Of a stretch of DNA of 64,000 nucleotides, positions 7,328 through 55,775 are shown one piece after another. The notes below the pieces were generated by a model that saw only the letters and a program-made list of their open reading frames with translations, ran no database searches and was not told where the DNA came from. The stretch's first letter is position 1. The number at the start of each line of letters is the position of its first letter. Both the position numbers and the translations under genes were made by a program. Source of the DNA: a virus; IMG/VR virus record IMGVR_UViG_3300045282_000084, positions 1-64,000 of that record, one strand, 5' to 3'.

Positions 7328-8209
7328 ATGGCTCGCAGCAAGATGGTCATCGCTGCGTCTCAGCATCTGGTTGACGCCAAACACTGTCTGTTCGGGGCGG
7401 ACGACAACTCGCGTGGGTTCACCGGCCCGCTTGGCATCGAGACGCAGATGGGCAAGGGCATGGGGGTGCGCAACCGCCACTACTCGTGGAACGCACCGGT
7501 AGGCACCATCGGGATCAACTGGGCGGCTGACTACACCAAGGGCCACATCCCCATGATTTCCCTCGGCGGTCAGGGCTACTCAGAGGAGATCGTGAAGGAG
7601 ATCGTCGCGGGCAATCACGACGCCTACTTCACCGCCATGTTCACGGCCATCAAGATGGGCAAGGGTATCTTCCGCCCGTGGATGGAGATGAACGGTGGTC
7701 ACAACACCTACTCGGCCGACACCGTGGCCTACATCGCCATGTGGAAGCGCGTGTATGAGCTGGCCCAGAAGGCGATGGCGACCAACCTGACCTGGGTCTT
7801 CTGTCCGCAGACGTTCGATCGCAAGAGCGTGTGGCCGAGCTACTGGCCGGGCGATGAGTACGTGGACTGGATGGGGCTCGATCTGTACCGCGACATCTTC
7901 GCCGCTGGAGATCCCTGGCGCTTGTGGGCGAACATGCACCACAAGCCCTTCTGCGTGTGCGAGTCGGGATTTCAGCAGGGCGTGCGGGTCAAGGGGTCTG
8001 ACGGCCGCAGCTACGACAAGGATGGAACGCTCACGGGCAACTCGCTGATCGACCAGGCTCGACTGGCGGTGAAGGCTCACCAGAACACGGTCATGTACCT
8101 GGTCTGGAACAACATCGGCCCCATCGGGGACGACTTCATCGACACCAGCCCCGAGTCCTTGCAGCAGTACCGGGCGTTCGCCGCTGACTCCTACTTCAAG
8201 TTCGTCTAG
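7328..8209 (+). CDS. GH26-like glycoside hydrolase
   Basis: This 293-residue protein reads as a (beta/alpha)8 glycosidase of the GH26 type, a family of beta-mannanases and related endoglycanases. The acid/base Glu is in FRPWMEMNGG (Glu120) and the likely nucleophile in CVCESGFQQ (Glu212). Between them lie VFCPQTF, WPSYWPGDEYVDWMGLDLY and, after the nucleophile, the closing strand TVMYLVWNN. Spacing and order match the family. There is no signal peptide, so it is probably a virion component rather than exported. It follows a secreted protein and precedes a tailspike, consistent with a polysaccharide-degrading device. A second, diverged GH26-like domain is in the giant protein downstream. The substrate cannot be read from sequence. 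Confidence 0.75.
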   Translation: MARSKMVIAASQHLVDAKHCLFGADDNSRGFTGPLGIETQMGKGMGVRNRHYSWNAPVGTIGINWAADYTKGHIPMISLGGQGYSEEIVKEIVAGNHDAYFTAMFTAIKMGKGIFRPWMEMNGGHNTYSADTVAYIAMWKRVYELAQKAMATNLTWVFCPQTFDRKSVWPSYWPGDEYVDWMGLDLYRDIFAAGDPWRLWANMHHKPFCVCESGFQQGVRVKGSDGRSYDKDGTLTGNSLIDQARLAVKAHQNTVMYLVWNNIGPIGDDFIDTSPESLQQYRAFAADSYFKFV

Positions 8210-8217
8210 GGGCTGCG

Positions 8218-10029
8218 ATGGGGGCGTACACACCACAGACGTGGCACGACGCTGATCCAACCACGCCGATCAGCGCCGCACGGCTGACGCACATTGAGGC
8301 TGGGCTTACCGACGCGGCCGCCCCTGCGAACCTCGCCATCGTGACACCCAGCGGGAACACCACCGCTGGTCTTACGATCGACACTCAGGACACGGCGACG
8401 GGATCGCAGGGGGTTGGGATCAACTGCGCCACTGGTGGGGGTACTGCTCACGCTCATGCCTTGTCGGCGATCCTGAGCGGCACCGGCAACGCCTTCTCCA
8501 GCGCGGCCAACTTCGTGTCCTCGAACCAGGCGGCAAGCTGCGTGCAGGTCAGCGGCAGCGAGACCGGGCGTGGCACCGTCAAGATCGCCCACACCGGGCC
8601 TGGCACCAACGCTGACGCCAACGCCGCCGCCCTGTCGATCAATCTCATCGGTGCGAGCACAGCCGCGATGGGCGTGTTCGTTGACTCGGTAGCTCAGGGC
8701 ACGACTGGGGACCTTCTGCGGCTCAAGAACAACGGCAACGAGATTTTCCGAGTGCAGACCGATGCTGGGTTCACCACGCCCATCATCAAGATCGGCGCAT
8801 CTCAGACGCAGCTCCTGGTCGGCGCTGGTGCACCATCAGGCGTGGTGTCCGCACCCACCGGATCGCTGTACCTAAACAGCTCTGGTGGCGTTGGCCTCAG
8901 TCTGTGGATCAAGGAGACGGGATCTGGTACGAGTGGGTGGGCGGTGCTGGGTGGCACCCTCAACGCCAAGAGCTACGGGGCCAAGGGCGACGGCTCCACC
9001 GACGACACGACCGCCCTGACGGCGTGGGTCACAGCCATCAACGCAGCCTCTGCTGGCTCCGAGGCCATCCTCCCGGCTGGCCAGTACGTGATCACCGCTC
9101 CGCTGCCTACCATCACCGCCACGGGCGTGACCATCAGGGGTAGCGGCTGGGCTCAGACCGCCAATACCACGGGCTCGGTCATCACCGCTGGCGTTGGCTG
9201 GAGCGGCACGGCCATTCTGACTCTGAACGGCGAGGGGATTGAGCTGCGGGGGCTGACCATCGATGCCGCAAACCGGGCGACTTCGGCCATCGTGATTACG
9301 GCTGCCAACTGCCGCCTGAACGGTATGAGCGCGCGGTCGAGCATCACCAACGGCGTCGTCGTGGACGTGCAGACCGGGGGCAACTCAATCTGGATGGCCG
9401 ACTGTCGCATCAACGGGATCAACTCGGGTGTGGTCGGAATCCAGATCAACGACACCGACGCCATCATCCACGGCTGCAAGCCGGTCAACTGCTTGCATTG
9501 CATCGTGCTGCTAGCGGGGGCTTCGGGTGCCCAGTTGATGGACAACCACATGACGCCGGGAGCTGGTGGCCAATGCTGTGTGTTCGTCAGCGGCAGCCCC
9601 AGCCACGTGCAGATGGACGGCAATCGCTTCGACAACTACGTGCGCTCCGCTGTCCAGATCACGCCCACAGCCTCGACGCCGAACAGCATCTCGATCACCA
9701 ACAACCACTTCCACTCCACGATTCAGACCGACAACACCTACGCCCTGATCGCCCTTGACACCACGGCGTCGGGCGTGCGCGGCCTGCATATCGTCGGCAA
9801 CTCGGGTTACGGCTCGGCCACGAACCGGCCCAAGTGGGCGCTGGCTTCGCAGGTGATCGACGGCACCACTCCCACGAACGTGACCCGCCTGAGCACGCTC
9901 GGGTCGCTGTACAACAGCAACACCATGTGGGCGGCGACGACCTCCTTCGGCAATGCGAGCCCGCTCGTGGCTCGTGGCAATCTGACTACCACGGATGGCA
10001 CCACGTATGCTGCCGTCACCGACATCTAG
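8218..10029 (+). CDS. tailspike with right-handed beta-helix (pectate-lyase fold)
   Basis: The 603-residue protein starts with a short adaptor (WHDADPTTPISAARLTHIEAGL) common at the N-termini of phage fibre proteins, then Ala/Gly/Thr-rich strands. At about residue 245 it has the hallmark entry to a Pectate_lyase_3 domain, AKSYGAKGDGSTDDTTAL, followed by a ladder of short strands and turns up to about residue 545 (LDNHM-, GNRF-, NNHF- and GNSG-type turns). Such trimeric spikes bind and often cut host surface glycans. It lies between the GH26-like enzyme and the giant adhesin. Catalytic residues of depolymerases of this type are not predictable from motif alone. Confidence 0.8.
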   Translation: MGAYTPQTWHDADPTTPISAARLTHIEAGLTDAAAPANLAIVTPSGNTTAGLTIDTQDTATGSQGVGINCATGGGTAHAHALSAILSGTGNAFSSAANFVSSNQAASCVQVSGSETGRGTVKIAHTGPGTNADANAAALSINLIGASTAAMGVFVDSVAQGTTGDLLRLKNNGNEIFRVQTDAGFTTPIIKIGASQTQLLVGAGAPSGVVSAPTGSLYLNSSGGVGLSLWIKETGSGTSGWAVLGGTLNAKSYGAKGDGSTDDTTALTAWVTAINAASAGSEAILPAGQYVITAPLPTITATGVTIRGSGWAQTANTTGSVITAGVGWSGTAILTLNGEGIELRGLTIDAANRATSAIVITAANCRLNGMSARSSITNGVVVDVQTGGNSIWMADCRINGINSGVVGIQINDTDAIIHGCKPVNCLHCIVLLAGASGAQLMDNHMTPGAGGQCCVFVSGSPSHVQMDGNRFDNYVRSAVQITPTASTPNSISITNNHFHSTIQTDNTYALIALDTTASGVRGLHIVGNSGYGSATNRPKWALASQVIDGTTPTNVTRLSTLGSLYNSNTMWAATTSFGNASPLVARGNLTTTDGTTYAAVTDI

Positions 10030-10722: not shown

Positions 10723-13700
10723 ATGGGCCTGCAATCCAGGCTCGGTGGTTTTCCATCATCGTCGGGCTTGAGCACGCGGTCGGGGTTCAACCGACCTAGC
10801 TCGCTGACATTCCAGTCGCAGGACTGGATCAAGATGATGCTGGCCACGCCTGCTGGTCAGTTCTCGCAGCAGACGCTGACCGATGACGCGTCGAAGTTCT
10901 TAGGTGGAACAGGGCCGGGATCTGCGACGTTCCCGATCGCCCTGAGCGACACGATCTCCGTGTCCGACACCCTACCCGTTCTCGTCGTCAGGCAGTTGAT
11001 CGATACTGCCATCACTCCTACTGCGGCGACGCCTACGGGTCTGACCAACTCCGCCGAGGGCGGCTCAAACGGCGTGACCGTCACTACTGCGAATAGTGGC
11101 GGCGCCAGCGGAAATGCGTGGACAACTGTGGCGGGTTCGCCGACGTTTCAATCGACACAGGTAGCACACGGTTCTCTTGCCTACAACATCCCAACCAATA
11201 GTGAAACTCTGATTTGGACTCAGGGTTCTGTTTCAGATGGGTATGTCAGGGCGTACTTTTATCTCTCGGCAAGTACGGCAGACTTTCGCATTTTCGGCTT
11301 CTTGGCCGCGTCTATTCAGTGGCGTATTCGTCTAAACACAAGCACATTCATCATTCAGAATGGCGCAGGAACAACAACTGAGGCAACCGGCACCGCGGTG
11401 TCCTCGGGGCAATGGTATCGGCTAGAGCTTCACCACAACTCGGCCGCACAGTTGGAGGCGAAGCTCTGGAACTCAAAGGATTCCAGTGGTGCAGCAGATC
11501 AGGACCTGGTTGCGGCTACTGCTACCAACTCGAACATCGATGAGCTGGAGTTCACATCGGGTGGAGCAGTCTCGTCGGTGTACCTGGACGATCTGAATGG
11601 GTTTGCTACGGCGTGGCCCGGTCCGGCCATTGGTGGGTCGATGGACACGCTGGTCGTGGCAATCACGCACACGCACCCGATTGCGCTCACCGACACGATC
11701 TCCATCACAGACTCCCTGCCGGTCAAGGTCGGGCGGTTCATCAGCGACACGATCTCGATCACAGACCTTCTGCTGCGCATAGCTCGCCCGCACATTGCCG
11801 ACACGATCTCGGTCACGGATGCCCTCGCGCGCAAGTTCGGCCCCTTTTTGGCGGACACGATCTCGATCACTGACGCCCTGATCGCGCTGAGGACACGAGC
11901 CCTGTCTGACACCATCTCGATCACTGACGCGCTCGCTCGCACGGCGCGTCCATCGATGGCCGACACCATTGCGGTCTCCGACCTGCTGCACACCCGCGCA
12001 GGTCCGCTACTCGCGGACACCATCACCGTCACCGACTCGCTCAAGCGGGCCATTGGCGAGATGGGGTTGATCGACACCATCTCCGTCACCGAGTCGTTGG
12101 CAAGGAGGAGCGCAACCGCTCCCACCGACACGATCTCAGTCTCCGATTCACTGGCCACCACCAGGGTCAGGTTCCTCGCCGACACGATCTCCGTGACTGA
12201 TGCATTGGCCAGAGGTGGGTTTGCCCGCTCGCTGACCGACACCATCAGCCTGACAGACGCGATCGTGAAGTTCGCCGTCCACGGCTTGGCTGACACGATC
12301 GCCATCTCCGACGCGCTCCCTACTGGCCGGAATCGGCCGCTGATGGACAGCGCCTACTCGTGGGCGTTCACCGATACGTTCACCCGTAGCTCGTCCACGG
12401 TGTTCGGGGGATCGTGGATTGGCACCAGCAGCCCGCACTTCAACGTGGATGGCTCCGAGGCTCAAGCGGTGTCGGTGATCGCCTCTCGCACCGGTCAGCA
12501 GTATCTCCTCGTCGGTCAAGCTGATGTACAGGTTCAGGTTCGGATGATGTTCGACCAGCTCCCGACGGGAGCAGGGCCGGTCGATTTCGGCGTGTGGGTT
12601 GACTCAGACAGCGCCAATGCCAACGGCTATCGCACCCGTTGGCAGATAGCCGTGGCTGGCACGATCTCGAATGTAACCGCGAGCGATGTGGCTACCACTC
12701 TGGCCACAGTGTCGTCTGGTACCCCATCTCAGGGCACGCCGCTGCCTGGTGAGTGGTGGTGGATGAAGGTCGAGCGGGCAGGGGTGAACCTGCGCGTCAA
12801 GGCTTGGAGGCAGACCAGCGTCGAGCCGTCTGCCTGGGATCACGACACCGTGGATACGGCCGTGCCCCCTGGCCAATACGTCGGTGTTCACTTCCAGACG
12901 CCTGCGGGCGTGACAAACACGCCGACGTTCAACTGGGACGACTTCTCCTGGCGCACGACCGATGTGCTGGTCAAGTCGGTGCCAGTGCTCTCCGACACGA
13001 TCAGTGTGTCCGACACGCTGATCTCTGGTCGGACTCGGCCCATCGCCGACACCATCTCGATCACAGATGCGCTTGTCAAGGGTGGCGCTGTACAGCGAGC
13101 CCTGTCAGACACGATCAGCGTCACGGACGCCATTGCTCGGCGGGCCTTGCCACTTGTGGCTGATTCAATCTCCCTCTCAGATTCGATTGGTAGAGGAAGA
13201 TCGCTAGTCGATGACGGTACGACGATGGGCGACCAGACCCTCGTCAGCGACACCTACACGCGGTCTGTGGGTAGCGGACTGGGCACGGCCGACACCGGTC
13301 AGACCTATGGCAACTTCGGAGCCTCGTCGGTGAATGGCTCTGCCGCTGTGCTTCCGGCCATCGCGAACACGGGCGTGGGCGCCTTCGTCAACGGGATCAC
13401 CAAGATCAACGAGGGCGGTTTGGTCAAGATCGCCTTCTCGGCGACGCCCACCGACACGATCTCGGTCTTCACGTTCCTGCGGCTAAACCCTGGCTTCACC
13501 GCCTACTACAACGTCCACCTGTATCTGTTCTCGGGTACGACGGTCAACCTCTCCAACACCGTCTTCACTCCGAGCACGACCTTTGCGGCTCCCGGTTCGG
13601 ACGTGACCATCGACGCCGCTTGGGTGAACACCCAGTCCTACTGGATGCGCTTCGAGGTGCAGGGCAACCAGCTTCGCTGGCGCGCATGGAAGGACGGCTC

Positions 13701-16700
13701 CGGTGAGCCAACGGCCTGGATGTTCATCACCACCGATTCCTCAGTCTCAACCGGGGGAACCGTTGGCTTCCAGACGTTCGGCGGCGCAGCTCTCACCGCT
13801 GGGATCAACGTCACCTTTGACAATCTGCTCGGCTACAACAACTCCGACAGCCTTCTGCTGAGGCCCACTCGCCCGCTGTCGGACACGATCTCGGTTTCAG
13901 ATTCGCTGCGGTTCAAGTTCGGGCGGCCGATCAGCGACACGATCTCAATCACCGACGCGCTGGTCAAGGGTGGGGTGAGCGCTCGCCCGATCTCGGACAC
14001 GATCAGCGTCTCCGATCTCCTTGCGCGCCGAGAGCAGCCGCTGATTACCGACACCATCAGCGTCTCGGATTCGCTGGTCAAGGCGGCAGTCAAGCTCATC
14101 GCCGACACGATCTCGGTGACCGACGCACTGCTGAGGGCTCCCACCCCGAAGCTCGCCGACACGATCGCGGTCTCGGACGCCCTGGCGTCACTTCGGGTGC
14201 GGCCACTGTCAGACACGATCGCGGTCAGCGATGGTCTGACGCTGCGAGTTGGCCGACCCATAGCCGACACCATCGCCGTCACGGATGGCCTGGCGAGCGT
14301 GGTCTCGGTGGTGCTGCACAACGACTTCGACACCGGCCAGACCTCGGGCACCACGATCACGACGGGCAACTCGGGTGCGACCGGCGACAACGCCTTCAAC
14401 ACCGTCGCTGGCGTCCCCACGTATGACTCGACCATTGCCTTTGCGGGCACGCTGTCGATGGCCTGCATCACCGGGGCAACGCGACAGGTCGGGTGGAGCA
14501 CCTCCCTGGGCACGCAGACTCTGCTGTGGGGACGCGCCTATGGCTCCTTCGCCTCACTCGCGGGCACGGCTATCCGCATCGTGCAGGCAGACGGCAATGT
14601 CACCACCAACCTGCTGCGCATCGCCACGGTGGCTGCCACTGGCGCGCTCCAGATCAGCGTCGCGAGCTTTGGCACGGTCACCACCACCCACACGCTCACC
14701 GCCAACCAGTGGTTCCGCATTGAGTGGAAGTTCCAGGTCACAGGCTCAGTCTCCTCGGTGGAACTCAAGCTGTTCCTCACTCCCACGTCGAGCACACCCG
14801 ACGAGACCATCTCCACATCGTTCGCTGAGACCGACTCCAGCTTTGCAGCCGTCAAGATCGGGGTTGGCTCAACCTCTGGCTCAACGTTCAACTTCGATGA
14901 GCTGAACACCAACAATCTGGGCTATCCAGGCCCGATCGCTGGGGGTGCATCCCGAGCCCTCACCGACACCATCTCTATCACTGACCTACTGCCGGTCAAG
15001 GTTGGACGATTCCTCGCAGAGACGATCACGGTCACCGACACGCTCGCGAGACGAACGCAGGTGGCGCTTGCCGAGACCATCTCAGTCACCGATCTGCTGG
15101 CACGAAGGGTTGGTCGTCCCCTCGCCGACACCATCTCGATCACCGATTTGCTGCCGGTCAGAGTTGGCCGCTTCCTGATCGACACCATCTCGATCACCGA
15201 CCTTCTCGCACGCGCACAGCTTCGCACGCTTGCCGACACCATCACCATCACTGATGCGCTGGCTGCCCTGGCCAAGCGTGGCCTCGTAGACACGATCTCT
15301 GTCACAGACTCGCTGCCGATCAGGGTCGCTCGATTCCTCACCGACACCATCTCCGTCACAGACCTGCTCGCGCGCGCACAGCTTCGCAGCCTGCTCGACA
15401 CGATCTCGATCACCGACGCCCTGGTTGTCCTGGCCAAGCGCGGGCTGACCGACACGATCGCCGTCACTGACGCGCTGGCGCTGAGAGTCGGACGCCCGCT
15501 CACCGACACCATCTCCATCACCGATTCCCTCGCGCGGCGAACGACGAGGCCCATAGCCGACACGATCTCGGTTACCGATGCGCTGGTACCAAGACGGTAC
15601 CGGCTGCTCGCAGACTCGATCACTGGCGGCGGCGCGGGGACGACGCCCACAGTCCGCTCGTCCAACGTGGCCGCATCGAGCGCCACCACGACCCTGAGCT
15701 TCTCCTCGCTGCCAAGTGGGGCCGCGGTGGGCGACATCTTGATGGTGCACGTCTCGGCCGTGCTCGGCTCCTCGGACATCACCTGCACCACCTCCAACCT
15801 TACGCGCTCGGTGATCACGAACGACTCCACCACCCTGCGCAGCGCGGTCTTCTGGCGAACGCTCACCTCCGGCGACATCTCCTCGCCGCCCACCATGAGC
15901 TTCTCGGGACCGAGCGCCACAGGCATGCACCTGAATGCCATGTGCGTGGTCGGGGCTGATCCCACCACGCCGGTAGCCAACACCGCCTCTGGGGCTTCGT
16001 CGGGCACCAGGGCCAGGGACATCACCATCGGTGGCAACACGGGGGAAGCTGCGGGCGAACTCGTGCTGGCTCTGATCGGGTCGAACTCCTCGCCCGTGCC
16101 GTGGGCGACCAACAACATCGTCGGCGCGCCGCTGGCAATGATCACGTCGGAACAGGTGCCTGGCGGCATGGTGGACTCGACTTCACAAGCCCGTGTCGAG
16201 ACGGCGATCGGCTTCAAGACTCCGATTGGGCATAGCTGGTACCAGTGGGACATGTCGGCTTACACCTTCCCGGAGGCTGGGGGTTCGGGGACTGGTGTCA
16301 CCAGCGACTACGAGAACAATCGCCTCAGCAGCATCTCGTGGCCCTCGGAGCAGACCTGGCCTGGTGGGCAGAACGCGACCGTCGTCTCCCCTAACGCGCC
16401 ATCTGGCGACACCAGCCCGAGCTACTGGCTCCAATATCTCGCCCAGGGCAACTACGACGCGCTGATCTACGCCTTCATGGCGAAGCTGCGGACGTGGGGC
16501 CGTGCGGTCGTGTTCCGCCCCTTCTGCGAGATGAATGGTGGTGACCACCCCTGGGAGGTTGCCTGGGAGACACATGTCCACCGTGCGACCGACGCCGAAC
16601 ATGCGACCTACTTGAAGCTGGCGTGGCAGCGCGTGTTCCTGATCGCCAAGGGCACCGACGCGGAGTTGGCATCTGCGGGCATGTTGAGCGCAGGTGGATT

Positions 16701-19700
16701 CACCACCAGCTCGCTTGCCTACACCCAGAACAGCGGTCACTCAGCCGATGCGCAGAACGTGTTCTTTCACTGGAACCCGCAGGCGTTCGAGACCTCGACC
16801 ACGAACCGTTGGGATGACTACTGGCCCGGAACGACGCCGAGCGGTCGGGCGTACGTGGACTTCGCAGGTGTCGAGCTGTACATCTCAACTGGGGGCACGT
16901 GGTCGTCAACGCTGAATCAGCTACTGCATTCCACAACGGTCAACTCTGGGCGAACACATAACTCCCTGTATGACCACTACATCCCATTGACGAATCTCAA
17001 CGGCGGTGGATCGGGCGAGACTGGCTACCGGTACAAGTCGAGTGAGGCTTCGACCGCCGCCGCCATCGCTCGCATCAACAGCATCTTCGACGGCACCAAC
17101 GGTCTGGCGTTCAACCCTCTGTGGCGATTCCTCGGCTACTGGGATGGTGGGTTGGAGACTGGGACAAACGGTGACTCCCACGTCGATAACACCGGCCACT
17201 CGGACATCAGAACCGCGATCACCACTATCCTGGCCACCGGCTACCTGCGGCCGGTGCTGACCGACACGATGCTGTCTGCCCCTTCGGGGTGGACGCTTGG
17301 AAAGCAAGCTCGGCGCTCTCTCGATACCGGGAGTACGAGCGCACACACGAACGGTGGCCCAGGCGAGGTTGGCTCAATCGTGCTGTGGGCGAGCGCTCCG
17401 ATCGCGTCAGCCACAGCGAGCACGGTTGGGTACGGCAACTACACGTCGCTGTCGTTACTGGTTTCTCCGATCTCAGTTGCGGGGATTTCCGACACCATCT
17501 CCTTCACCGTGCGGCCAACGGTTCCGCTGGTGGACACCATCACCATCACGGAGTCGATCCAGCTCCGCACCGCGTACAAGATCGCGGACACGATCTCCAT
17601 CAGCGACTCTCTCGCTCGCGCGCAGCCCCGAGCCCTCGCCGACACGATCTCGATCACCGATGCGATCAAGCGCCGGATCACGCCGCTGCTCACCGACATT
17701 GGTGCCTTCCCGAACCTGCTGCTGCCTGGCGGCACGGTGCTCCCTGGCGGCGGGGTCGTTGCTACCGACTGCGACACGCTGGCCGTCACGGTCAGACGGT
17801 TCCTGGCTGACACGATCTCGGTCTCTGACTCGCTGGTGCGCAAGCCGACTCGCGCGCTCATCGACACCATCGCCGTCAGCGACAGCCTGGTCAAGTACGC
17901 CGCGAAGCTGCTGGCCGACACCATCGCGGTCTCCGACTCTCTGGCGCGACGGGTCACCAGGCCACTCGCCGACACCATCGCGATCTCCGACGCTCTGGCA
18001 AAGGGCACCTTGCTGCACCTGTCCGAGACCATCTCCGTCTCGGACACACTCGCCAGCCTTCGGGTCAGGCCGATCACCGACACGATCTCGATCACCGAGA
18101 ACCTGGCAACGTCGGCTTCGGGTCACAAGAGCGTCACGCTGTCAGACACGATCTCGGTCAGCGACGCGTTGGCACTGCGGACCACCCGTCTGTTCGCCGA
18201 CTCCATCTCAATCACCGACAACCTGACGGCCGTAGCCGGTCACAGGCAGGTCGCCCTTGCCGACACGATCGCCGTCTCTGATTTGCTCGCCCGCAAGGGT
18301 GCGCCTCAACTGACCGACACGATTGCTGTCGGCACCGATCAGACCCTTGGCGCCGACACATTCTCTCGCACCGTACCCGTAGGTCTCGGCATAGCGGACT
18401 CTGGTCAGAGCTACGGCACCTTCGGTTCAGGAATCAGTGTCGGCTCTGGGGTGGCCTCGATCCCATTCGCTGCGAACACCGGCATCGGCGGCTACATGGT
18501 CGGGCCAAACTCGAAGAACACTGGCGCGCTGATGAAGATGGGCTTCACGGCGCTGCCGGACGATATCGCAAGCTCCTTCCTGCTTCTGCGCCTCGACTCA
18601 GGATTCACCCACTACTACAACGCTCACCTGTACCTGACGCCAGGTGGCCAGGTCGTCCTGAGTCGCACCATCTTCACGCCGTCTGGCTCTTTTGACGCAG
18701 GCACGAGCGACATCACCATCGATGCCTCGTGGGTGAACACGCAGGCGTACTGGCTGAGGTTCGAGGCTTTGGGCACAACCCTGCGCTGGAAGGCGTGGAA
18801 GGACGGGTCGAGTGAGCCGCACGCTTGGTCGTTCGTGACGGTGGATGGCAGCGTGTCCGCATCAGGCACGGTTGGCTTCCAGACCTTCGCGAATGCGGGC
18901 CTGACGGCGAGCGTTCAGGGCACCTTCGATCAGCTCAGTTTCTACAGCCCCGGCGATTGGATCACCACCGCTCTGCCCAGCCGCCATCTGCCGCTCGTTG
19001 ACACCATCTCGATCAGCGACCGGCTCCAGCACCACGTTCTGGGCACGAGCATCACAGCGGCACAGACGACCGATCCTCACTACGCGCCGATCGTCCTGCG
19101 CTCGTTCCAGTCGGTGACCCCGGAGTACGAGATGCAGTGGGGGCAGGTGGAGCCTTCGCAGGGCACGTTCTTCTGGACGAACGTTGACACGATCACCGCC
19201 TGGGCGGTGGCCAATCGCAAGCAAGTGAGGGGCCACACACTGATCTGGGACGGCGGTGGCGACCCGGCGATGATGCCGCCCTGGGTCACGGGCGGATCAT
19301 GGACATCGACCACGCTCAAGGCTGCCCTCCAGGCTCACATCAACGCTGTCGTCGGCCGCTACAAGGGCGTGGTTCGGGTCTGGCATGTGGTCAACGAGGC
19401 ATTCGAGGACGACGGTTCACGCACGAACTGGATCTTCCAGAACGTCATCGGAGACTCGTGGATCGAGCTTGCATTCCAGTACGCCTATGCCGCTGACCCG
19501 ACCGCAAAGCTGCTCTACAACGACTATGGCGACGACTGGGGCTACTACAGCCTGAATCCGAAATACAACGCCATCCTGGCGATGGCGACTGACTTTGTGA
19601 ATCGTGGCATTCCGATTCACGGCATCGGCTTCCAGGGCCATTACGACCTCCAGTACACCGATTATCCCGACCCAGCCGATCTGACGGGGGTTCTTTCAAC

Positions 19701-20613
19701 CTACGCCGCCCTCGGTCTTGAAGTTCATCTGACCGAGCTGGATTGTCGCATCGACAACGTGGCTGACCCGATGGCGACCAGACTCACTAACCAGGCCACC
19801 GTGTACAGAAACGCCAGGAACGGCTTGGTTGGTGCGCAGGGCGATTACATCAACATCTGGGGCATCTCCGACGCGACCAACTGGCTTGGTCCCACGGCCG
19901 CGTCAGCCCCACTCGACACCCGCTACATCGAGAAGCCAGCGTGGAGGCAGATCAACGACTTCGTTGAGCCCGCCACCTTCTACCCAGGGTTGACCGACAC
20001 GATCTCGGTGTCAGACGCGCTGACGACGAAGCGCACGCACGCTTTGGCCGATGCGATCTCGATCAGCGATGCGCTGTCGGTCAGGCACCCGCGCACCCTG
20101 GCTGACTCGATCTCTGTCACTGACTCCTTGCGCCGCACTCCTGGGCCGCGGTTGGCCGACACGATCGTGATCTCCGACAGCCTGCGCGCGCAGGTCGGCA
20201 AACGGAATCTTGCCGACGCGATCAGCGTCTCTGACGCGCTCAATGTCGGCCCAGCGCGCCGTCTGAACGACAGCCTCAGCGTCACGGACAGCCTCAAGTC
20301 GCTCCGCATCCGTCGCCTTGACGACACCATCGCCATCAGCGATCGGATCAAGGGTCAGCAGATCCTTCACGACGGCTTCCAGGTCAGTGACCTGCTCACG
20401 TTCGTAGGCACGTTCCTCGAACTCCAGGCGTTCTTCACTCTGCGCGATTTTGCTGCCGTGCGCTTCCTGACCGCCGATTTCGCAGCCGTGGGCTTCACAT
20501 CGATCACCCGCCGCTTCGCCCGTTCGACCACAGCGGAGAAGCTGGTCGGCTTCACCAGTCGGGACTTCCGGGCGACCGACACCGTGCTGACCGAGGAACC
20601 GGATACAGTTTGA
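10723..20613 (+). CDS. giant modular adhesin with GH26-like and GH10 domains, 3296 aa
   Basis: This single gene encodes about 3300 residues built from alternating blocks. Repeats of 18-20 residues (DTISVTDAL plus a basic linker) occupy roughly residues 76-90, 324-540, 758-830, 1053-1194, 1413-1635, 2256-2541 and 3091-3226. Between them sit lectin-like beta-sandwich modules at about 117-303, 547-746, 840-1044, 1196-1403, 1643-1848 and 2542-2746; the third and last are clear paralogues. A GH26-like domain at about 1843-2184 has FRPFCEMNGGD (Glu1936) and YKSSEAST (Glu2108). A GH10 domain at about 2776-3086 has HTLIW (His2838), WHVVNEAFED (acid/base Glu2892) and VHLTELD (nucleophile Glu3005). GH10 enzymes cut beta-1,4-xylan and related glycans. 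The location in a tail-fibre block and the absence of a signal peptide suggest a long virion-attached fibre carrying two enzymes. Substrate and attachment are inferred. Confidence 0.85.
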   Translation: MGLQSRLGGFPSSSGLSTRSGFNRPSSLTFQSQDWIKMMLATPAGQFSQQTLTDDASKFLGGTGPGSATFPIALSDTISVSDTLPVLVVRQLIDTAITPTAATPTGLTNSAEGGSNGVTVTTANSGGASGNAWTTVAGSPTFQSTQVAHGSLAYNIPTNSETLIWTQGSVSDGYVRAYFYLSASTADFRIFGFLAASIQWRIRLNTSTFIIQNGAGTTTEATGTAVSSGQWYRLELHHNSAAQLEAKLWNSKDSSGAADQDLVAATATNSNIDELEFTSGGAVSSVYLDDLNGFATAWPGPAIGGSMDTLVVAITHTHPIALTDTISITDSLPVKVGRFISDTISITDLLLRIARPHIADTISVTDALARKFGPFLADTISITDALIALRTRALSDTISITDALARTARPSMADTIAVSDLLHTRAGPLLADTITVTDSLKRAIGEMGLIDTISVTESLARRSATAPTDTISVSDSLATTRVRFLADTISVTDALARGGFARSLTDTISLTDAIVKFAVHGLADTIAISDALPTGRNRPLMDSAYSWAFTDTFTRSSSTVFGGSWIGTSSPHFNVDGSEAQAVSVIASRTGQQYLLVGQADVQVQVRMMFDQLPTGAGPVDFGVWVDSDSANANGYRTRWQIAVAGTISNVTASDVATTLATVSSGTPSQGTPLPGEWWWMKVERAGVNLRVKAWRQTSVEPSAWDHDTVDTAVPPGQYVGVHFQTPAGVTNTPTFNWDDFSWRTTDVLVKSVPVLSDTISVSDTLISGRTRPIADTISITDALVKGGAVQRALSDTISVTDAIARRALPLVADSISLSDSIGRGRSLVDDGTTMGDQTLVSDTYTRSVGSGLGTADTGQTYGNFGASSVNGSAAVLPAIANTGVGAFVNGITKINEGGLVKIAFSATPTDTISVFTFLRLNPGFTAYYNVHLYLFSGTTVNLSNTVFTPSTTFAAPGSDVTIDAAWVNTQSYWMRFEVQGNQLRWRAWKDGSGEPTAWMFITTDSSVSTGGTVGFQTFGGAALTAGINVTFDNLLGYNNSDSLLLRPTRPLSDTISVSDSLRFKFGRPISDTISITDALVKGGVSARPISDTISVSDLLARREQPLITDTISVSDSLVKAAVKLIADTISVTDALLRAPTPKLADTIAVSDALASLRVRPLSDTIAVSDGLTLRVGRPIADTIAVTDGLASVVSVVLHNDFDTGQTSGTTITTGNSGATGDNAFNTVAGVPTYDSTIAFAGTLSMACITGATRQVGWSTSLGTQTLLWGRAYGSFASLAGTAIRIVQADGNVTTNLLRIATVAATGALQISVASFGTVTTTHTLTANQWFRIEWKFQVTGSVSSVELKLFLTPTSSTPDETISTSFAETDSSFAAVKIGVGSTSGSTFNFDELNTNNLGYPGPIAGGASRALTDTISITDLLPVKVGRFLAETITVTDTLARRTQVALAETISVTDLLARRVGRPLADTISITDLLPVRVGRFLIDTISITDLLARAQLRTLADTITITDALAALAKRGLVDTISVTDSLPIRVARFLTDTISVTDLLARAQLRSLLDTISITDALVVLAKRGLTDTIAVTDALALRVGRPLTDTISITDSLARRTTRPIADTISVTDALVPRRYRLLADSITGGGAGTTPTVRSSNVAASSATTTLSFSSLPSGAAVGDILMVHVSAVLGSSDITCTTSNLTRSVITNDSTTLRSAVFWRTLTSGDISSPPTMSFSGPSATGMHLNAMCVVGADPTTPVANTASGASSGTRARDITIGGNTGEAAGELVLALIGSNSSPVPWATNNIVGAPLAMITSEQVPGGMVDSTSQARVETAIGFKTPIGHSWYQWDMSAYTFPEAGGSGTGVTSDYENNRLSSISWPSEQTWPGGQNATVVSPNAPSGDTSPSYWLQYLAQGNYDALIYAFMAKLRTWGRAVVFRPFCEMNGGDHPWEVAWETHVHRATDAEHATYLKLAWQRVFLIAKGTDAELASAGMLSAGGFTTSSLAYTQNSGHSADAQNVFFHWNPQAFETSTTNRWDDYWPGTTPSGRAYVDFAGVELYISTGGTWSSTLNQLLHSTTVNSGRTHNSLYDHYIPLTNLNGGGSGETGYRYKSSEASTAAAIARINSIFDGTNGLAFNPLWRFLGYWDGGLETGTNGDSHVDNTGHSDIRTAITTILATGYLRPVLTDTMLSAPSGWTLGKQARRSLDTGSTSAHTNGGPGEVGSIVLWASAPIASATASTVGYGNYTSLSLLVSPISVAGISDTISFTVRPTVPLVDTITITESIQLRTAYKIADTISISDSLARAQPRALADTISITDAIKRRITPLLTDIGAFPNLLLPGGTVLPGGGVVATDCDTLAVTVRRFLADTISVSDSLVRKPTRALIDTIAVSDSLVKYAAKLLADTIAVSDSLARRVTRPLADTIAISDALAKGTLLHLSETISVSDTLASLRVRPITDTISITENLATSASGHKSVTLSDTISVSDALALRTTRLFADSISITDNLTAVAGHRQVALADTIAVSDLLARKGAPQLTDTIAVGTDQTLGADTFSRTVPVGLGIADSGQSYGTFGSGISVGSGVASIPFAANTGIGGYMVGPNSKNTGALMKMGFTALPDDIASSFLLLRLDSGFTHYYNAHLYLTPGGQVVLSRTIFTPSGSFDAGTSDITIDASWVNTQAYWLRFEALGTTLRWKAWKDGSSEPHAWSFVTVDGSVSASGTVGFQTFANAGLTASVQGTFDQLSFYSPGDWITTALPSRHLPLVDTISISDRLQHHVLGTSITAAQTTDPHYAPIVLRSFQSVTPEYEMQWGQVEPSQGTFFWTNVDTITAWAVANRKQVRGHTLIWDGGGDPAMMPPWVTGGSWTSTTLKAALQAHINAVVGRYKGVVRVWHVVNEAFEDDGSRTNWIFQNVIGDSWIELAFQYAYAADPTAKLLYNDYGDDWGYYSLNPKYNAILAMATDFVNRGIPIHGIGFQGHYDLQYTDYPDPADLTGVLSTYAALGLEVHLTELDCRIDNVADPMATRLTNQATVYRNARNGLVGAQGDYINIWGISDATNWLGPTAASAPLDTRYIEKPAWRQINDFVEPATFYPGLTDTISVSDALTTKRTHALADAISISDALSVRHPRTLADSISVTDSLRRTPGPRLADTIVISDSLRAQVGKRNLADAISVSDALNVGPARRLNDSLSVTDSLKSLRIRRLDDTIAISDRIKGQQILHDGFQVSDLLTFVGTFLELQAFFTLRDFAAVRFLTADFAAVGFTSITRRFARSTTAEKLVGFTSRDFRATDTVLTEEPDTV
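10948..20394 (+). repeat. about 60 in-frame DTISVTD-type coding repeats
   Basis: By hand count I find roughly 60 copies of a 54-60 base unit coding for D-T-I-S/A-V/I-T/S-D-x-L followed by 8-11 variable, usually basic residues and a Leu-Ala or Leu-Ser. Main arrays lie at 11692-12345 (12 copies), 12985-13205 (4), 13879-14310 (8), 14960-15625 (12), 17488-18345 (about 14) and 19995-20400 (7-8), with single copies at 10948 and 19000. The core is conserved in protein and partly in DNA (GACACGATCTCG), while linkers vary. This suggests growth by unequal recombination, then divergence. Confidence 0.9.
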
Positions 20614-21083: not shown

Positions 21084-22670
21084 GTGGATCTTGAGGCCGT
21101 TCTCAAGCGCCTGACTGAGCTGGCAGAGAAGGCTGCTGCCGGTGAAAACGTGGATGAGGAGCGAAAGAAGCTGGAGGCAGAAAAGGCACGTCTCCAGCGT
21201 GAGGAGGACGAGCGCGCCGCCAAGGCCGCTGACGCAGAGGACACCAAGGGCCAGAAGGCCGACGACAACTCGAACGAGTCCGAGCTTGACCGGCTTCGTC
21301 GTGAGAAGCGCGAGCGCGATGAGCGCGAGTTCGTTCAGAGCGTCGTAGGCAAGGCGCTCGAAGTTGCTCGTGGAAATCAGGACGAGCAGCGCAAGCGGAT
21401 GCAGTCTCTGGCCGAGGAGGAGCTTGCCAAGGCTCTCGGCGGTGGTGCACTTGACGAGACCGTGCGCGGTCTCCTCGCCTCGACCCGCACCGAGTCCCGC
21501 TTCATTGGCGCAGGTGGCGACGAGGATGTCGCCAAGGCCATCGCAGCGGGAGGCACAGTGGATCGAAACTACGCCGGGGGTACCCAGGTCGCCATCTCCA
21601 AGGGAGCAGAGGCGATCTTCAAGCGCAAGTCCCTGGCTGAGTTCATGTCGATCGTCGCCCGCGCCTCGCGGCCAGCGATGGGCATCCTCAAGCCCGAGGA
21701 GAAGGAGTTCCTGGAGTGGTCGCAGAAGGCAGCCCTCGCAGAGGGCACGACCACAGCCGGTGGGTTCCTGATCCACCCCGAGTGGATGCCTGACATCCTC
21801 GGCCTGCTCCGTGGCTGGGCGATCGTGCGTCAGGCCAATCCGCGTATCGTGCCGTTCTCCAGGCTCATGAACCAGACGAGCATCTCGTCAGGCGCAACGG
21901 CCTTCTACACGGCAGAGAACGCGGTCATCTCGCCAAGCGGGATGACGTTCAACGAGGCTCCGCTGCTGACGCCGCACAACCTGACGGCGCTGGTGCCAGT
22001 CTCCAACTACCTGCTCAACGACGCGGCTGCTGCCGAGGGCATCGTCCGCGACGACCTCGCCGTGGTCATGGGGCTGCGCGAGGATCTCGCGTTCATCCAG
22101 GGCGTCGGTACCGGCGGCGAGCCTCTGGGCCTGCGCAACATCTCCGGTATCACGCTGAACCCGCTGACGGTCGCCACCAACGGCATCGCCGTCAACCTCG
22201 TCAACATGCGCCAGATCAAGAACACCGTCCGCTCGATGAACGCGGTCGGCGCTCGCTGGGCCTGGTTCTTCAACCCGGCGCTGGTCTCGCATCTGGAGAC
22301 TCTGACCGACTCGTTCGGCCGCTTCCTGGCGGACACGTCGATCCTCTCCTACGACGAGCCGAACCACAGCGGCACCCTCGACGGCGTACCGTTCTTCACC
22401 TCCAACCAGATCCCCATCAACCTGACGACCGGCACGTCTACGAACACCACGTATCTGATGCTGGTGAACATGTCCGAGACGATCGTCGGAGCGAGCCAGG
22501 ATCTGACCCTGGACGTGTCGAGCGAGGCGTCGTACACCACAGACGGTGGCACCACCTGGGTGTCCACTTTCCAGAACAACCAGACGCTGTTCCGGGCCGT
22601 GATGCGGCATGACATCAATCACCGCCGCCCGAACCAGATCATCGTGCAGACCGGGGTGATTGTCCCGTAA
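21084..22670 (+). CDS. major capsid protein, HK97 fold, with delta domain
   Basis: The GTG start at 21084 is set by a perfect AGGAGG seven bases upstream. Residues 1 to about 130 are a charged coiled coil (the delta or scaffold domain removed by the prohead protease). From about residue 165 the HK97 capsid fold appears: LAEGTTTAGGFLIHPEW, SRLMNQTSISSGATAFYTAENA, LVPVSNYLLNDAAA, LAFIQGVGTGGEPLGLRN, WAWFFNPALVSHLETL, TLDGVPFFTSNQIPI, and the final TLFRAVMRHDINHRRPNQIIV. Total length (528) fits a capsid with an uncleaved scaffold domain. Its separation from the protease by 15 kb is unusual. Confidence 0.92.
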   Translation: MDLEAVLKRLTELAEKAAAGENVDEERKKLEAEKARLQREEDERAAKAADAEDTKGQKADDNSNESELDRLRREKRERDEREFVQSVVGKALEVARGNQDEQRKRMQSLAEEELAKALGGGALDETVRGLLASTRTESRFIGAGGDEDVAKAIAAGGTVDRNYAGGTQVAISKGAEAIFKRKSLAEFMSIVARASRPAMGILKPEEKEFLEWSQKAALAEGTTTAGGFLIHPEWMPDILGLLRGWAIVRQANPRIVPFSRLMNQTSISSGATAFYTAENAVISPSGMTFNEAPLLTPHNLTALVPVSNYLLNDAAAAEGIVRDDLAVVMGLREDLAFIQGVGTGGEPLGLRNISGITLNPLTVATNGIAVNLVNMRQIKNTVRSMNAVGARWAWFFNPALVSHLETLTDSFGRFLADTSILSYDEPNHSGTLDGVPFFTSNQIPINLTTGTSTNTTYLMLVNMSETIVGASQDLTLDVSSEASYTTDGGTTWVSTFQNNQTLFRAVMRHDINHRRPNQIIVQTGVIVP

Positions 22671-24935: not shown

Positions 24936-25322
24936 ATGGAACGGATCTTCAAGACCCCGGAGGACTCGCACGATGCGGTCGAGATCGTGGGCGTCGGGGT
25001 TGTCCCTGCCTATGGCAAGGGGGGCATCCTCGTCTCCCGCGTCGAGCTTCCAGAACTCGGTAAGGTCGAGGGCAAGGAGCGCGACGAGGCGGTCAAGGTG
25101 TGGGCCGAGAGTCGCGGCCTGGTCGTCATGGACGCCAAGAAGGCCGAGATGGACGCACTCGAACCACCCGAAAACGAACTCTACTCAGTGGGGCGCGAAG
25201 CCTACATGAAGCTGTTCCCCAACGATCAGACCACCGTCGCTACGGTGGTAGAGGAGGTTCAGCCCGCGCCGCCTCAGAAGGCTGATCTCACGTCGAGTGA
25301 GGCGAAGGGAGGCTCCAAGTGA
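24936..25322 (+). CDS. hypothetical protein before tail tube, 128 aa
   Basis: AGGAGGAG precedes the ATG. The N-terminal 80 residues form a compact alpha/beta unit (DAVEIVGVGVVPAYGKGGILVSRVELPEL, then a DEAVKVWAESRGLVVMD helix-strand). The C-terminus is Pro/Glu-rich. It ends on the GTG of the tail tube gene (GTGA overlap). Unknown function; possibly a tail completion accessory protein. Confidence 0.6.
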   Translation: MERIFKTPEDSHDAVEIVGVGVVPAYGKGGILVSRVELPELGKVEGKERDEAVKVWAESRGLVVMDAKKAEMDALEPPENELYSVGREAYMKLFPNDQTTVATVVEEVQPAPPQKADLTSSEAKGGSK

Positions 25323-27741: not shown

Positions 27742-30700
27742 GTGGCATTCTCAGATTATGTCCTGATTCGCTACCTGGCGACGTTCACCGACAACGCCTC
27801 TCGCCAGGCTGCCATTACGAACAAGCGCATCAGGGACGGTGCCACCGCTACGTCGGCCGCTCAGTTGTCGGCGTCACGGCAGACGGTGACGGGCCTGAAC
27901 AACGTCGCTCGCGCAGCCACCGCGTCAGGCAAGGCCCTCTCGACCTACGTGACCCTGCCAGTCCTGGCGGTCGGGGCTGCGTCGGTGAAGATGGCCGTGG
28001 ACTTCAACACGGCCATGACTCGCGTGCACGCCCTGACCGGGGCGAACGCCGCTCAGATCGACAAGTGGAGCAAGTCGATTCAGACCCTGGCCGTGCAGAC
28101 TGGCCAGGGTCCCAAGGCGCTGGCTGACTCGCTGTACTACGTCGCCTCCGCTGGCCTTGCGACCTCGCAGGTCATGCCGGTGGTCAGGGACTCCGCGAAG
28201 GCAGCGGCGACCGGCATGGGCGACGCCGCCGTCGTCGCTGACGTGCTTACCTCAGCCCTGAACGCCTACCGTGGTTCGGGACTGACAGCGAAGACGGCAA
28301 CGGACAATCTCGTCGCCGCGATCAAATACGGCAAGGGCGAGCCGACCGACTTCGCCACCTCGCTCGGTCGCATCATCGGCCCCGCCGCCCAGCTCAACGT
28401 GTCGTTTGGGCAGACCACGGGAGCGATCGCAGCCCTGACCAACCAGGGCCTGGACGCATCAGAGGCGGTCACTGGTCTGCGCCAGGTGTTCGTGGAGTTC
28501 CTCAAGCCCTCGGCGAATGCCACCAAGGTCTTGAAGTCGATGGGCTTCACCGCCGATGAGCTTCGCCTTGACCTGGCCAAGCCGAACGGGCTCATGAAAA
28601 CCCTGGCCCTGCTGCGCGTGCACATGGGCGGCCTCGGGATCGACACCAAGAAGCTGGGTGAGATCACCAAGACGAGCGGTACGGCTGCGGGTCTGGCCTA
28701 CATCTCGAAGAACTCGAAGTCGCTGTCTGACTCGATCGCTGGGGTGTTCCCCAACGTGCGTGCCCTGAACGCCTTCCTGCTCTTGACGGGTAAGGGTGCC
28801 GCCAAGGCTGGACAGACGATCAGACAGGTCGCCCACGACAACACCGCGCTCAACAAGGCATTCTCGACCACGGTGCAACAGTCGGCATCGTTCCGCCTGC
28901 ACCAGCTCTGGGCAACTGTGCAGGTTGATCTGATCTCGTTTGGGAATGTCGTGCTTCCAATCCTCGACAAGGTGGCGATCAAGCTGACGGGCTGGTTCAA
29001 GGCGCTCGCACATCTTTCACCAGGAACGCGCACCTTGATCGTGGAGGCGGGGCTACTCGTCGCGGCGCTTGGTCCGATGTTGTACATCTTCGGCTCGATA
29101 CTTCTCGTCGGAACAGCCGTTGGGTCGTTGTTCCTCGACATCCCCATCGCAATGGCGATAGCGACGGCAGCGTTCCTCGCTGCGGGGTTGACTGCAAAGA
29201 ACGGCCTTGCGCATCCGCTCAACCTCGTCCATCAGATCATCGGCACCTTGAAGAAGGATTGGCCGACGATCAAGAAAGATGCGACCTCAGCGTTCACGAT
29301 CATCGGGCGAGTTGCGGCGGACACCGGGCATATCGTCATCGACTTCTTCAAGATGATCCACGACTTCTACACGGGCGACTGGAGCGGACTGTGGCAGAAC
29401 GCCGAGGGTGTGCTCAACCACTTCGGCGACATCGCGAGCATTGTGTTCAAGGGTCTTGAGCGCCTCGTCCCCGATGCGATCAAAGCTATGACCGCGAGCT
29501 GGCAGAACGCAGCCACAGCGCTGGGACTTCTAGCCGTTGCCATGATCAGAATCAAGACCGTCAGCATCGGCTCCTTCCTGGGTGGCGGTGGTGGTGGAGC
29601 AGCGGTCGCAGGTGAAAGCGGCATAGCTGCCCAGTTTGGTGCAGGCTTCGGAGCTTCGCGATTGGGCGGTGGGATCGCACGGCTTCGTCGTGGAGGATTG
29701 ATCCCTGGATTGACGAGGAGCATCTACCAGGATGCGATCGAAGCTCAGTCCGCTCGCAACCTCGCAAGCAGCGGGGTTGTAGCCAGCGGGCTCACCAAGG
29801 GCGCACCGCGACTGTTCGCTGGTGGTGGGGCTGTCGCAGGGGCTGCGGTCACGGCGGAAAGTGCGGCGGCGTTCGGGGCTGTCTCGAACTTTCAGAAGCT
29901 CCAGGCAGTAGGCAAGACAGTGCTCCCCACTCTGGGAGCGATCGGCACAACTCTGGGCACGGCAGGGATTGCCGGTGCGGCGATCGCCGCTGGGGTCGGG
30001 ATCTACTTCCTGGTCAAGGCGCTCACTGGTGGAGAGTCAGCTACGCAGAAGATGCACGACCAGCTCATGAAGCTGACCGACACGCAGGGGTCTCTTAGAC
30101 GATTAGCTGGGTCGGTGGGGCCGATGGCGCTCCAGCTCCAGAGCAGCCGTCTCAACTTGAAGGATCTCACCAATCAGCTTTCTGAGTATCGACAGGAGCT
30201 TGCAAAGGCGAAGCCTCACACCCAGGAATACCAGCAACTCCAGCTCCAGATTTCTGAGACCACCAATGCGCGCGCCCAGGCGATGGCGTCCCTACGAACG
30301 CAGACCTCCCAGTACAACAAGGAGCTGTCGGCTGAGATTTCCCGTGGTGACGCACTCCTGCGACAAGAGCGCACCACGACGGTGGGCCAGGTCGTGGGTC
30401 AGATTGGCGGGAGCAATGGTGCCACCCGCGGTCTCGTGCAACAGATCCTCCGTCGAATCCAGAGTGGCAGTCAGAACGCTGGTGCGCTATTCGGCCGATT
30501 CTTCGGAGGCCCACTCGGCGCGAAGCAGTCTCAAACGCTTGGTATCTCGAAGGATGACATCCGCAACCTGATCATCGCCGTTCAGCAGAACGCTAAACTC
30601 AAGGGCACCATCGACGCAATGAGCAGGGCGTACCAGCAGATGCGCATTGCTGGTATCGATCCCGCCTCAAGAGCGATGGGTCGGCTGCGCAGGGAGATCA

Positions 30701-40471: not shown

Positions 40472-40480
40472 GAGGAGAGC

Positions 40481-55629: not shown

Positions 55630-55775
55630 GCTTTTTTCAGATCGACAAGGAGATCCCATGCCCCGATTGCGAGTCATCGATGGACCCCGACGAGCAGCTC
55701 TCCTGCCCCACCTGTGGGGGAGCTGGCGTGGTGCCTGAGTCGTGGGTAAGCCCCGAAAGGGAGCGCGAGACCTGA
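55626..55775 (+). CDS. DnaJ-type zinc-finger protein, 49 aa
   Basis: GTG 55626 overlaps the previous stop. The sequence IPCPDCESSMDPDEQLSCPTCGGAGVV shows two CxxC pairs with a CxxCGGAG ending, as in the Cys-rich domain of DnaJ. It overlaps the next gene by 34 bases. Whether it works with the J-domain protein 2 kb upstream is unknown. Confidence 0.55.
   Translation: MSFFQIDKEIPCPDCESSMDPDEQLSCPTCGGAGVVPESWVSPERERET

What the first reader, a model, noticed from the sequence alone, without database searches (positions are those of the whole stretch)
19048..19980. GH10 (xylanase-family) domain inside a giant phage adhesin
The order of motifs is that of GH10: HTLIW, WHVVNEAFED (acid/base Glu2892), VHLTELD (nucleophile Glu3005) and the final WGISDATNW. 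GH10 enzymes cut beta-1,4-xylan-type glycans and are normally bacterial or fungal secreted enzymes. Here the domain is internal to a 3296-residue protein with DTISVTD repeats on both sides, no signal peptide, in a tail-fibre block. A virion-borne GH10 would point to an unusual host surface glycan or environmental polymer.
Basis: partly seen in the sequence, partly recalled or inferred. Interest (0 to 1): 0.85.

Follow-up and report, generated by a model that had tools for sequence, protein, structure and literature searches.

The report
Xylanase-family enzyme inside giant phage fibre
A soil-type bacterial virus carries, inside one giant repeat-built protein encoded among its particle genes, a sugar-polymer-cutting enzyme domain of the xylanase family (GH10), with further glycan-cutting domains beside it, which suggests the virus digests a polysaccharide coat or matrix to reach its host.

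Summary
Window ORF 10723-20613 (3296 aa) contains one full GH10 domain (Pfam E=3e-72; AlphaFold pLDDT 88; Foldseek top hits are all GH10 xylanases). Both catalytic glutamates (E2892, E3005) are present. The domain starts slightly earlier than stated (about 19021).

(1) The glycone (-2) pocket is rebuilt: Lys47, invariant in 90 of 90 comparators, is Gln; Asn44 is Tyr; the Gln87 loop carries an insertion. Ordinary xylan specificity should not be assumed. (2) GH10 is not alone. The same protein has a probable GH26-like domain, ORF 7328-8209 is a GH26, ORF 8218-10029 is HylP plus pectate-lyase-like, and a secreted GH16 lies outside the window. (3) The giant gene lies between head protease and major capsid genes, not in a classical tail-fibre block.

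GH10 in phage DNA is not new (Caulobacter phage Cr30; soil viromes). GH10 occurs in virion operons of two other uncultivated phages, and GH26 in many tail-like phage proteins. What I found nowhere else is a GH10 embedded in a lectin/repeat fibre. Best reading: a virion depolymerase fibre, probably of a phage of Thermoleophilia or related Actinomycetota. Virion location and activity are untested.

The parts
10723..20613 (+). giant 3296-aa ORF: repeats, beta-sandwich inserts, GH26-like domain, GH10 domain
   Evidence: ORF listing, translation, Pfam, repeat map
19021..19980 (+). GH10 domain, residues about 2767-3086 (Pfam match 19036-19956)
19396..19398 (+). Glu2892, general acid/base (WHVVNEAF)
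   Evidence: alignment with 91 GH10 proteins, E in 91/91; numbering
19735..19737 (+). Glu3005, nucleophile (HLTELD)
   Evidence: E in 91/91 comparators; numbering
19126..19137 (+). Tyr2802 ... Gln2805 in EYEMQW: replace Asn44 and Lys47 (Cex numbering) of the -2 subsite
   Evidence: Asn in 86/91 and Lys in 90/90 non-gap comparators
16264..17217 (+). probable GH26-like second glycosidase domain, residues about 1848-2165; acid/base Glu1936 (FRPFCEMNGG); candidate nucleophile Glu2108 (KSSEAST)
   Evidence: hhalign against five GH26 proteins 96.9%, E=1.8e-10, control 0.2%; BLASTP to P0003 E=3e-9; six of six weak tblastn hits are glycosyl hydrolases. No Pfam hit and no good model
11692..12312 (+). 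DTISVTD repeat array 1, 18-aa period (12 units)
12994..13185 (+). DTISVTD repeat array 2
13882..14292 (+). DTISVTD repeat array 3
14965..15600 (+). DTISVTD repeat array 4 (12 units)
17533..18285 (+). DTISVTD repeat arrays 5 and 6, with a short gap
19996..20343 (+). DTISVTD repeat array after GH10 (7 units)
10969..11691 (+). beta-sandwich (lectin-like) insert 1
   Evidence: alignment of five inserts; no Pfam hit
12313..12993 (+). beta-sandwich insert 2
13186..13881 (+). beta-sandwich insert 3; 31.6% identical over a stretch to a hypothetical protein of Streptomyces phage Dubu
14290..14964 (+). beta-sandwich insert 4
18286..18999 (+). beta-sandwich insert 5, close to insert 3
7328..8209 (+). separate 293-aa GH26 protein (FRPWMEMNGG; VCESGF), no obvious signal peptide
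   Evidence: PF02156 E=3.7e-8, 33.5 bits against cut-off 20.2;
8218..10029 (+). HylP hyaluronidase plus pectate-lyase-like beta-helix fibre protein
   Evidence: PF07212 E=5.8e-29, PF12708 E=5.1e-9; phrog_2332
833..3118 (+). portal protein
   Evidence: phrog_12 E=2.6e-52
4721..5764 (+). head maturation protease
   Evidence: phrog_80 E=1.6e-22
21084..22670 (+). major capsid protein
   Evidence: PF05065 E=1.7e-33; phrog_617
27742..33408 (+). tail tape-measure protein
   Evidence: phrog_1533 E=2e-56
35014..38961 (+). 1315-aa protein with a Laminin_G_3 domain (second large adhesin candidate)
   Evidence: PF13385 E=3.7e-21

Best explanation
The giant protein is a virion-displayed adhesin/depolymerase fibre. 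DTISVTD repeats form a long stalk or string (inferred). The lectin-like inserts bind glycans (inferred from their type). The GH10 barrel, and probably the GH26-like barrel, cut beta-1,4-linked polysaccharide of the host's surface or surrounding matrix by the retaining two-glutamate mechanism, so that the particle reaches its receptor. The separate GH26 protein and the HylP/pectate-lyase-like fibre encoded just upstream would act on the same or neighbouring polymers. Shown: fold and catalytic residues of the GH10, domain order, gene context. Inferred: presence on the particle, catalytic activity, host (probably Thermoleophilia or related Actinomycetota), target polymer. The altered -2 pocket argues that the target is not plain unbranched xylan.
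For: GH10 fold and catalytic pair. Gene order portal-protease-GH26-HylP-giant-capsid in one run on one strand. Lectin-like inserts and repeats. Similar repeats in ORFs of 18 other viral contigs, and another repeat protein with a GH26 (L049). GH10 in virion operons of two other phages: L019 directly after an S49 head protease, L015 in a tail module. GH26 domains in many multi-domain phage proteins without an evident signal peptide, two of them beside Laminin_G_3 and one fused to an SU10-type adaptor. Codon usage of the GH10 part matches the virion genes (r=0.957; 320-codon windows average 0.93), so it is long resident and not an assembly join.
Against: No proof that the protein is in the particle. 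Three -2 subsite positions conserved in most or all GH10 compared are changed, so activity could be lost or altered. A capsid relative (L022, 40% identical) has no such gene between protease and capsid, so the module is dispensable. The GH26-like domain appears to lack the first strands of the barrel.
Confidence: 0.55

Rival explanations
1. The GH10 domain has become mainly a glycan-binding or slow-cutting receptor-binding module: the barrel is kept but the sugar pocket has drifted.
For: Lys47 to Gln, Asn44 to Tyr, a loop insertion at Gln87 and Asp to His in WDVVNE, at positions highly conserved in 91 comparators; long branch of 1.8 in the tree.
Against: Both catalytic glutamates, the Asn before the acid/base, the GHTL and QxH histidines and the WGxxD...W motif are kept, which selection on binding alone would not require.
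Confidence: 0.2
2. The giant protein anchors virions to an environmental polymer (plant xylan, mannan or a soil matrix) where hosts live, rather than opening the host's own coat.
For: The set GH10, GH26, pectate-lyase-like and GH16 resembles a plant-cell-wall toolkit; many lectin-like inserts.
Against: GH10, GH26 and HylP also fit bacterial exopolysaccharides; HylP-type proteins are known as phage tools against host capsule (established knowledge). No sampling-site data are available here.
Confidence: 0.13
3. It is a soluble enzyme or auxiliary metabolic gene product, released at lysis to feed carbon metabolism, not a particle part.
For: GH10, GH26 and GH16 are reported as auxiliary CAZymes of soil viruses (PMC6460857); most other viral-contig GH10s are short single-domain enzymes, several with a secretion signal.
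Against: No evident signal peptide, a 3296-aa repeat/lectin scaffold, location between head protease and capsid genes, and repeated association of GH10/GH26 with virion genes in other phages.
Confidence: 0.1
4. Assembly chimera: a bacterial xylanase joined to a phage gene.
For: Only one contig carries this arrangement; no near relative was found.
Against: One uninterrupted frame with repeats on both sides and codon usage equal to the rest of the genome.
Confidence: 0.02

Closest known systems
Glycoside hydrolase family 10 (CAZy GH10 / PF00331), e.g. Cellulomonas fimi Cex, Streptomyces xylanases
   Same: Fold, catalytic glutamates and most active-site motifs
   Different: No secretion signal of its own, embedded in a giant phage protein; -2 subsite residues Asn44, Lys47 and Gln87 replaced; Asp of WDVVNE is His
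Caulobacter phage Cr30 gp072, annotated beta-1,4 xylanase
   Same: GH10 match in an isolated phage; cited as a xylanase depolymerase in PMC5380687
   Different: Stand-alone gene of about 394 aa, weak GH10 match (22.9 bits over profile positions 42-129), not among annotated structural genes; no repeat or lectin domain is annotated
Virion-associated polysaccharide depolymerases (tailspikes; PMC5380687)
   Same: Presumed role: cutting host surface or matrix glycan during adsorption; encoded with virion genes
   Different: Classical ones are mostly beta-helix trimers (established knowledge); here TIM-barrel glycosidases sit inside a long repeat/lectin protein
Phage proteins with GH5-type barrels (e.g. 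Pseudomonas phage POR1, 873 aa; Erwinia phage phiEaP8; Klebsiella phage SopranoGao)
   Same: Clan GH-A type barrels in large phage proteins; among the best hits of the GH10 model in the viral structure library
   Different: Mostly family GH5, TM only about 0.5-0.6 and 10-15% identity; no entry named GH10 among the hits
Uncultivated phages L019 and L015 (IMG/VR)
   Same: GH10 without evident signal peptide in a virion operon
   Different: 406-450 aa single-domain genes; their GH10s group together and apart from the window's, so probably a separate acquisition
L049 protein of 610 aa (IMG/VR contig of 91.9 kb)
   Same: DTISVTD-like repeats plus a clan GH-A glycosidase
   Different: GH26 instead of GH10, much shorter

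Membership tests
GH10 | significant match to the family profile over the whole domain | tested here: met
   PF00331 E=3e-72, positions 12-309 of 311
GH10 | (beta/alpha)8 barrel like solved GH10 xylanases | tested here: met
   pLDDT 87.9; top Foldseek hits are GH10 xylanases
GH10 | acid/base Glu (NE) and nucleophile Glu (TELD) | tested here: met
   E2892 and E3005 aligned with 91/91 comparators
GH10 | conserved xylose pocket (Asn44, Lys47, Gln87); typical of xylanases, not required for family membership | tested here: not met
   Tyr, Gln and an insertion in the window
GH10 | endo-beta-1,4-xylanase (or related) activity | not testable with these tools
   needs assay
GH26 (residues about 1848-2165 of the giant) | significant profile match | tested here: inconclusive
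   hhalign 96.9% to a five-member GH26 alignment; no Pfam hit
GH26 (residues about 1848-2165 of the giant) | complete barrel with both catalytic Glu | tested here: inconclusive
   acid/base Glu1936 clear, nucleophile Glu2108 only proposed, N-terminal strands seem missing, model pLDDT 45.6
GH26 (ORF 7328-8209) | significant Pfam match with EMNG and CESG motifs | tested here: met
   PF02156 33.5 bits against cut-off 20.2; sequence
virion-associated depolymerase | encoded among virion structural genes | tested here: met
   between head protease and capsid genes
virion-associated depolymerase | present in the particle | not testable with these tools
   needs virion proteomics or cryo-EM
virion-associated depolymerase | degrades a host surface polysaccharide | not testable with these tools
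   needs assay; host uncertain
auxiliary metabolic gene | secreted or cytoplasmic stand-alone metabolic enzyme outside the virion modules | tested here: not met
   embedded in a 3296-aa repeat protein in the structural module

The most novel reading that the evidence does not exclude
The phage builds a particle-borne, multi-enzyme glycan-degrading fibre: lectin-like domains plus two different clan GH-A glycosidases strung on one repeat scaffold, with a GH26 and a HylP/pectate-lyase-like fibre beside it, aimed at a heteropolysaccharide whose repeat unit needs a retuned GH10. It would be a virion counterpart of multi-domain plant-polymer enzymes.
Probability: 0.3. Interest if true: 0.75.

Novelty: new variant of a known kind. 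Interest (0 to 1): 0.58.

Why it matters
Phage depolymerases are known mainly as beta-helix tailspikes of phages of human pathogens. This case, with the GH10/GH26 survey around it, indicates that soil-type phages, probably of Actinomycetota, use clan GH-A barrels (GH26 often, GH10 rarely) as modules in virion-type proteins. Catalogues that count such genes as carbon-cycling auxiliary genes may be counting particle tools instead. It also gives a testable lead to the surface glycans of Thermoleophilia, for which few phages are known (my own knowledge).

Tried and rejected
(1) Near relatives of the GH10 in IMG/VR: none by exact 8-residue patterns. A degenerate scan found 11 loci, no embedded GH10 among them. 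(2) INPHARED phages: only eight weak matches, all in unannotated fecal contigs. (3) GH26-like domain: no Pfam or NCBIfam hit, no useful PDB sequence match, AlphaFold model too poor to use. (4) Scans with tape measure and with residues 1620-2270 gave no relatives. (5) A first codon-usage comparison (r=0.75) suggested foreign origin; with rare amino acids left out and matched windows, GH10 is ordinary (0.957), so I dropped it. (6) Chimera rejected for the same reason. (7) A literature check of the -2 subsite roles found nothing usable: Asn44 in PMC5811086 belongs to a GH11 enzyme. (8) Capsid relatives in Thermoleophilia genomes (L138-L140) are not beside recognisable GH or repeat proteins. (9) No paper in the library on GH26 depolymerases of phages.

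Full report
What was checked. The stated stretch 19048-19980 lies in one 3296-residue ORF, 10723-20613 (+). Its translation matches Pfam GH10 with E=3.2e-73, and the whole ORF gives 3.1e-72 over profile positions 12-309 of 311. A search of the whole 79,346-base virus record finds this one GH10 only. By sequence it matches 142 distinct PDB sequences, the first being a Streptomyces/Cellulomonas GH10 chimera. A model built with 26 GH10 relatives has pLDDT 87.9, and Foldseek returns GH10 xylanases at TM about 0.83. The catalytic residue numbers in the finding are right. Strand beta-1 (HVLGTSI) lies just before the stated start, so the domain is about 2767-3086, window 19021-19980.

Active site. 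In an alignment with 91 GH10 proteins (80 from bacterial and archaeal genomes, 11 from viral contigs) both catalytic glutamates, the preceding Asn, the GHTL histidine and the QxH histidine are kept in the window protein. Four positions differ. Lys47 (Cex numbering) is Lys in 90 of 90 and Gln here. Asn44 is Asn in 86 of 91 and Tyr here. The Asp of WDVVNE is Asp in 90 of 91 and His here. The loop holding Gln87 (79 of 91) has a five-residue insertion here. From general knowledge of GH10, Asn44, Lys47 and Gln87 line the -2 subsite. I could not find an open paper to cite for this in the library. I read this as a retuned glycone pocket on an intact catalytic core. Loss of activity is possible.

The rest of the giant. 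There are 57 repeats of the DTISVTD type, mostly with an 18-residue period. Five inserts of about 230 residues align with each other, some only weakly, and look like lectin-type beta-sandwiches (LRWKAWKDGSSEPxAW); inserts 3 and 5 are closest. Insert 3 has 31.6% identity over 161 residues to a hypothetical protein of Streptomyces phage Dubu. Residues about 1848-2165 are a probable second glycosidase. The motifs FRPFCEMNGG and YVDFAGVELY match GH26. Weak tblastn hits in plasmids are six of six glycosyl hydrolases, and the five fetched are Pfam GH26 proteins. hhalign gives 96.9%, E=1.8e-10, while the GH10 domain as control gives 0.2%. Pfam itself does not call it, the first strands seem missing and the model failed, so I hold this at 'probable'.

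Neighbours. The order is portal 833-3118, protease 4721-5764, GH26 protein 7328-8209 (Pfam 3.7e-8), HylP plus pectate-lyase-like 8218-10029, a small unknown 10279-10719, the giant, major capsid 21084-22670, connectors, and tape measure 27742-33408. BLASTP links the GH26 protein and the GH26-like domain of the giant (E=3e-9). Outside the window, at 77973-78596 (-), the record encodes a GH16 protein with a signal-like N-terminus (Pfam 1.6e-10; sequence). A capsid relative (L022, 40% identity) has nothing comparable between protease and capsid, so this is an accessory block in the head module.

How general. A scan of IMG/VR with conserved GH10 patterns found 11 loci, all single genes of 289-797 residues, several with evident signal peptides. 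Two matter here. L019 has GH10 directly after an S49 head protease, behind terminase and portal. L015 has GH10 in the tail module of a phage with a tail sheath, apparently in an isolate genome. Their GH10s group together (96/90), while the window GH10 lies in the Actinomycetota clade (90/91) next to a Solirubrobacterales protein (95/79; both branches long, flagged as unsure). This suggests independent captures. Repeats of the DTISVTD kind occur in 18 other viral contigs, in ORFs up to 2706 aa, with no GH10 in those records. L049 carries similar repeats plus GH26. A GH26 scan returned 24 loci, many of them multi-domain proteins of 470-1644 aa without an evident signal peptide. All eight tested are Pfam GH26, two with Laminin_G_3. 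L047 fuses GH26 to an SU10-type adaptor. GH26 is thus a recurrent module in virion-type proteins and GH10 a rare one. These scans need exact short patterns, so absence is weak evidence.

Known precedents. Caulobacter phage Cr30 gp072 is annotated beta-1,4 xylanase and passes the GH10 cut-off weakly; a review lists it as a xylanase depolymerase (PMC5380687). Mangrove soil viromes list GH10, GH26 and GH16 as auxiliary CAZymes (PMC6460857). In the viral structure library the GH10 model finds GH5-type phage proteins at best. GH10 in a phage is therefore not new. I found no other case of GH10 embedded in a repeat/lectin fibre.

Host. The capsid core is 42-49% identical (best E=2.7e-83) to proteins in Thermoleophilia genomes (class of a Solirubrobacterales genome, 299 sampled). 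The best in other samples is 2.8e-11 (class of Actinoplanes, 297), 7.5e-31 (class of a Terriglobia genome, 299) and 7e-13 (Chloroflexota, 301). This favours a Thermoleophilia host but rests on a capsid gene and on samples of each group.

Origin. The GH10 codon usage equals that of the virion genes, so the domain is not a recent arrival and the contig is not chimeric there.

Most likely mechanism. A long virion fibre binds glycans with lectin-like inserts, while the GH10 barrel (and probably the GH26-like one) hydrolyses beta-1,4 linkages in host exopolysaccharide or the surrounding matrix with retention, opening the way to the receptor. Shown: domains, residues, context. Inferred: particle location, activity, target, host.

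Noticed in passing
outside the window, same record 77973-78596 (-); L002:17973-18596: Secreted GH16-family protein (DEIDFTE; Pfam E=1.6e-10) with a signal-like N-terminus: a third glycosidase family in this phage.
   Followed up: partly
   Followed up: yes
L019:9869-11221: GH10 gene directly after an S49 head protease; its barrel is interrupted by a stretch resembling the beta-rich modules of phage tail proteins. The upstream ORF 2-709 looks like another sugar-active barrel but has no Pfam hit.
   Followed up: partly
L047:3-2003: GH26 domain fused to an SU10-type adaptor protein: a glycosidase attached to a connector component.
   Followed up: partly
L049:6885-8717 and record G023 55641-55967: Repeat protein with GH26; a second GH26 gene lies elsewhere in the same 91.9 kb phage record.
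   Followed up: no
L002:8054-8896 (record about 68054-68896): von Willebrand factor A domain protein with weak matches.
   Followed up: no
40126-41619: 497-aa ORF with a weak papain-family cysteine protease match (E=1e-4) near the lysis genes.
   Followed up: no
48855-49784: Rad52/22-type recombination protein (E=8e-13).
   Followed up: no
3177-4274: Short stretch resembling major tail protein/tail sheath families (phrog_10909, phrog_2839), shared with the tail gene at 25319-26785; probably a common small domain between portal and protease.
   Followed up: no
L132-L134, L138-L140: Capsid genes 42-49% identical in Thermoleophilia genomes, without obvious tail or GH genes within the stretches read; could be satellites or remnants.
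   Followed up: partly
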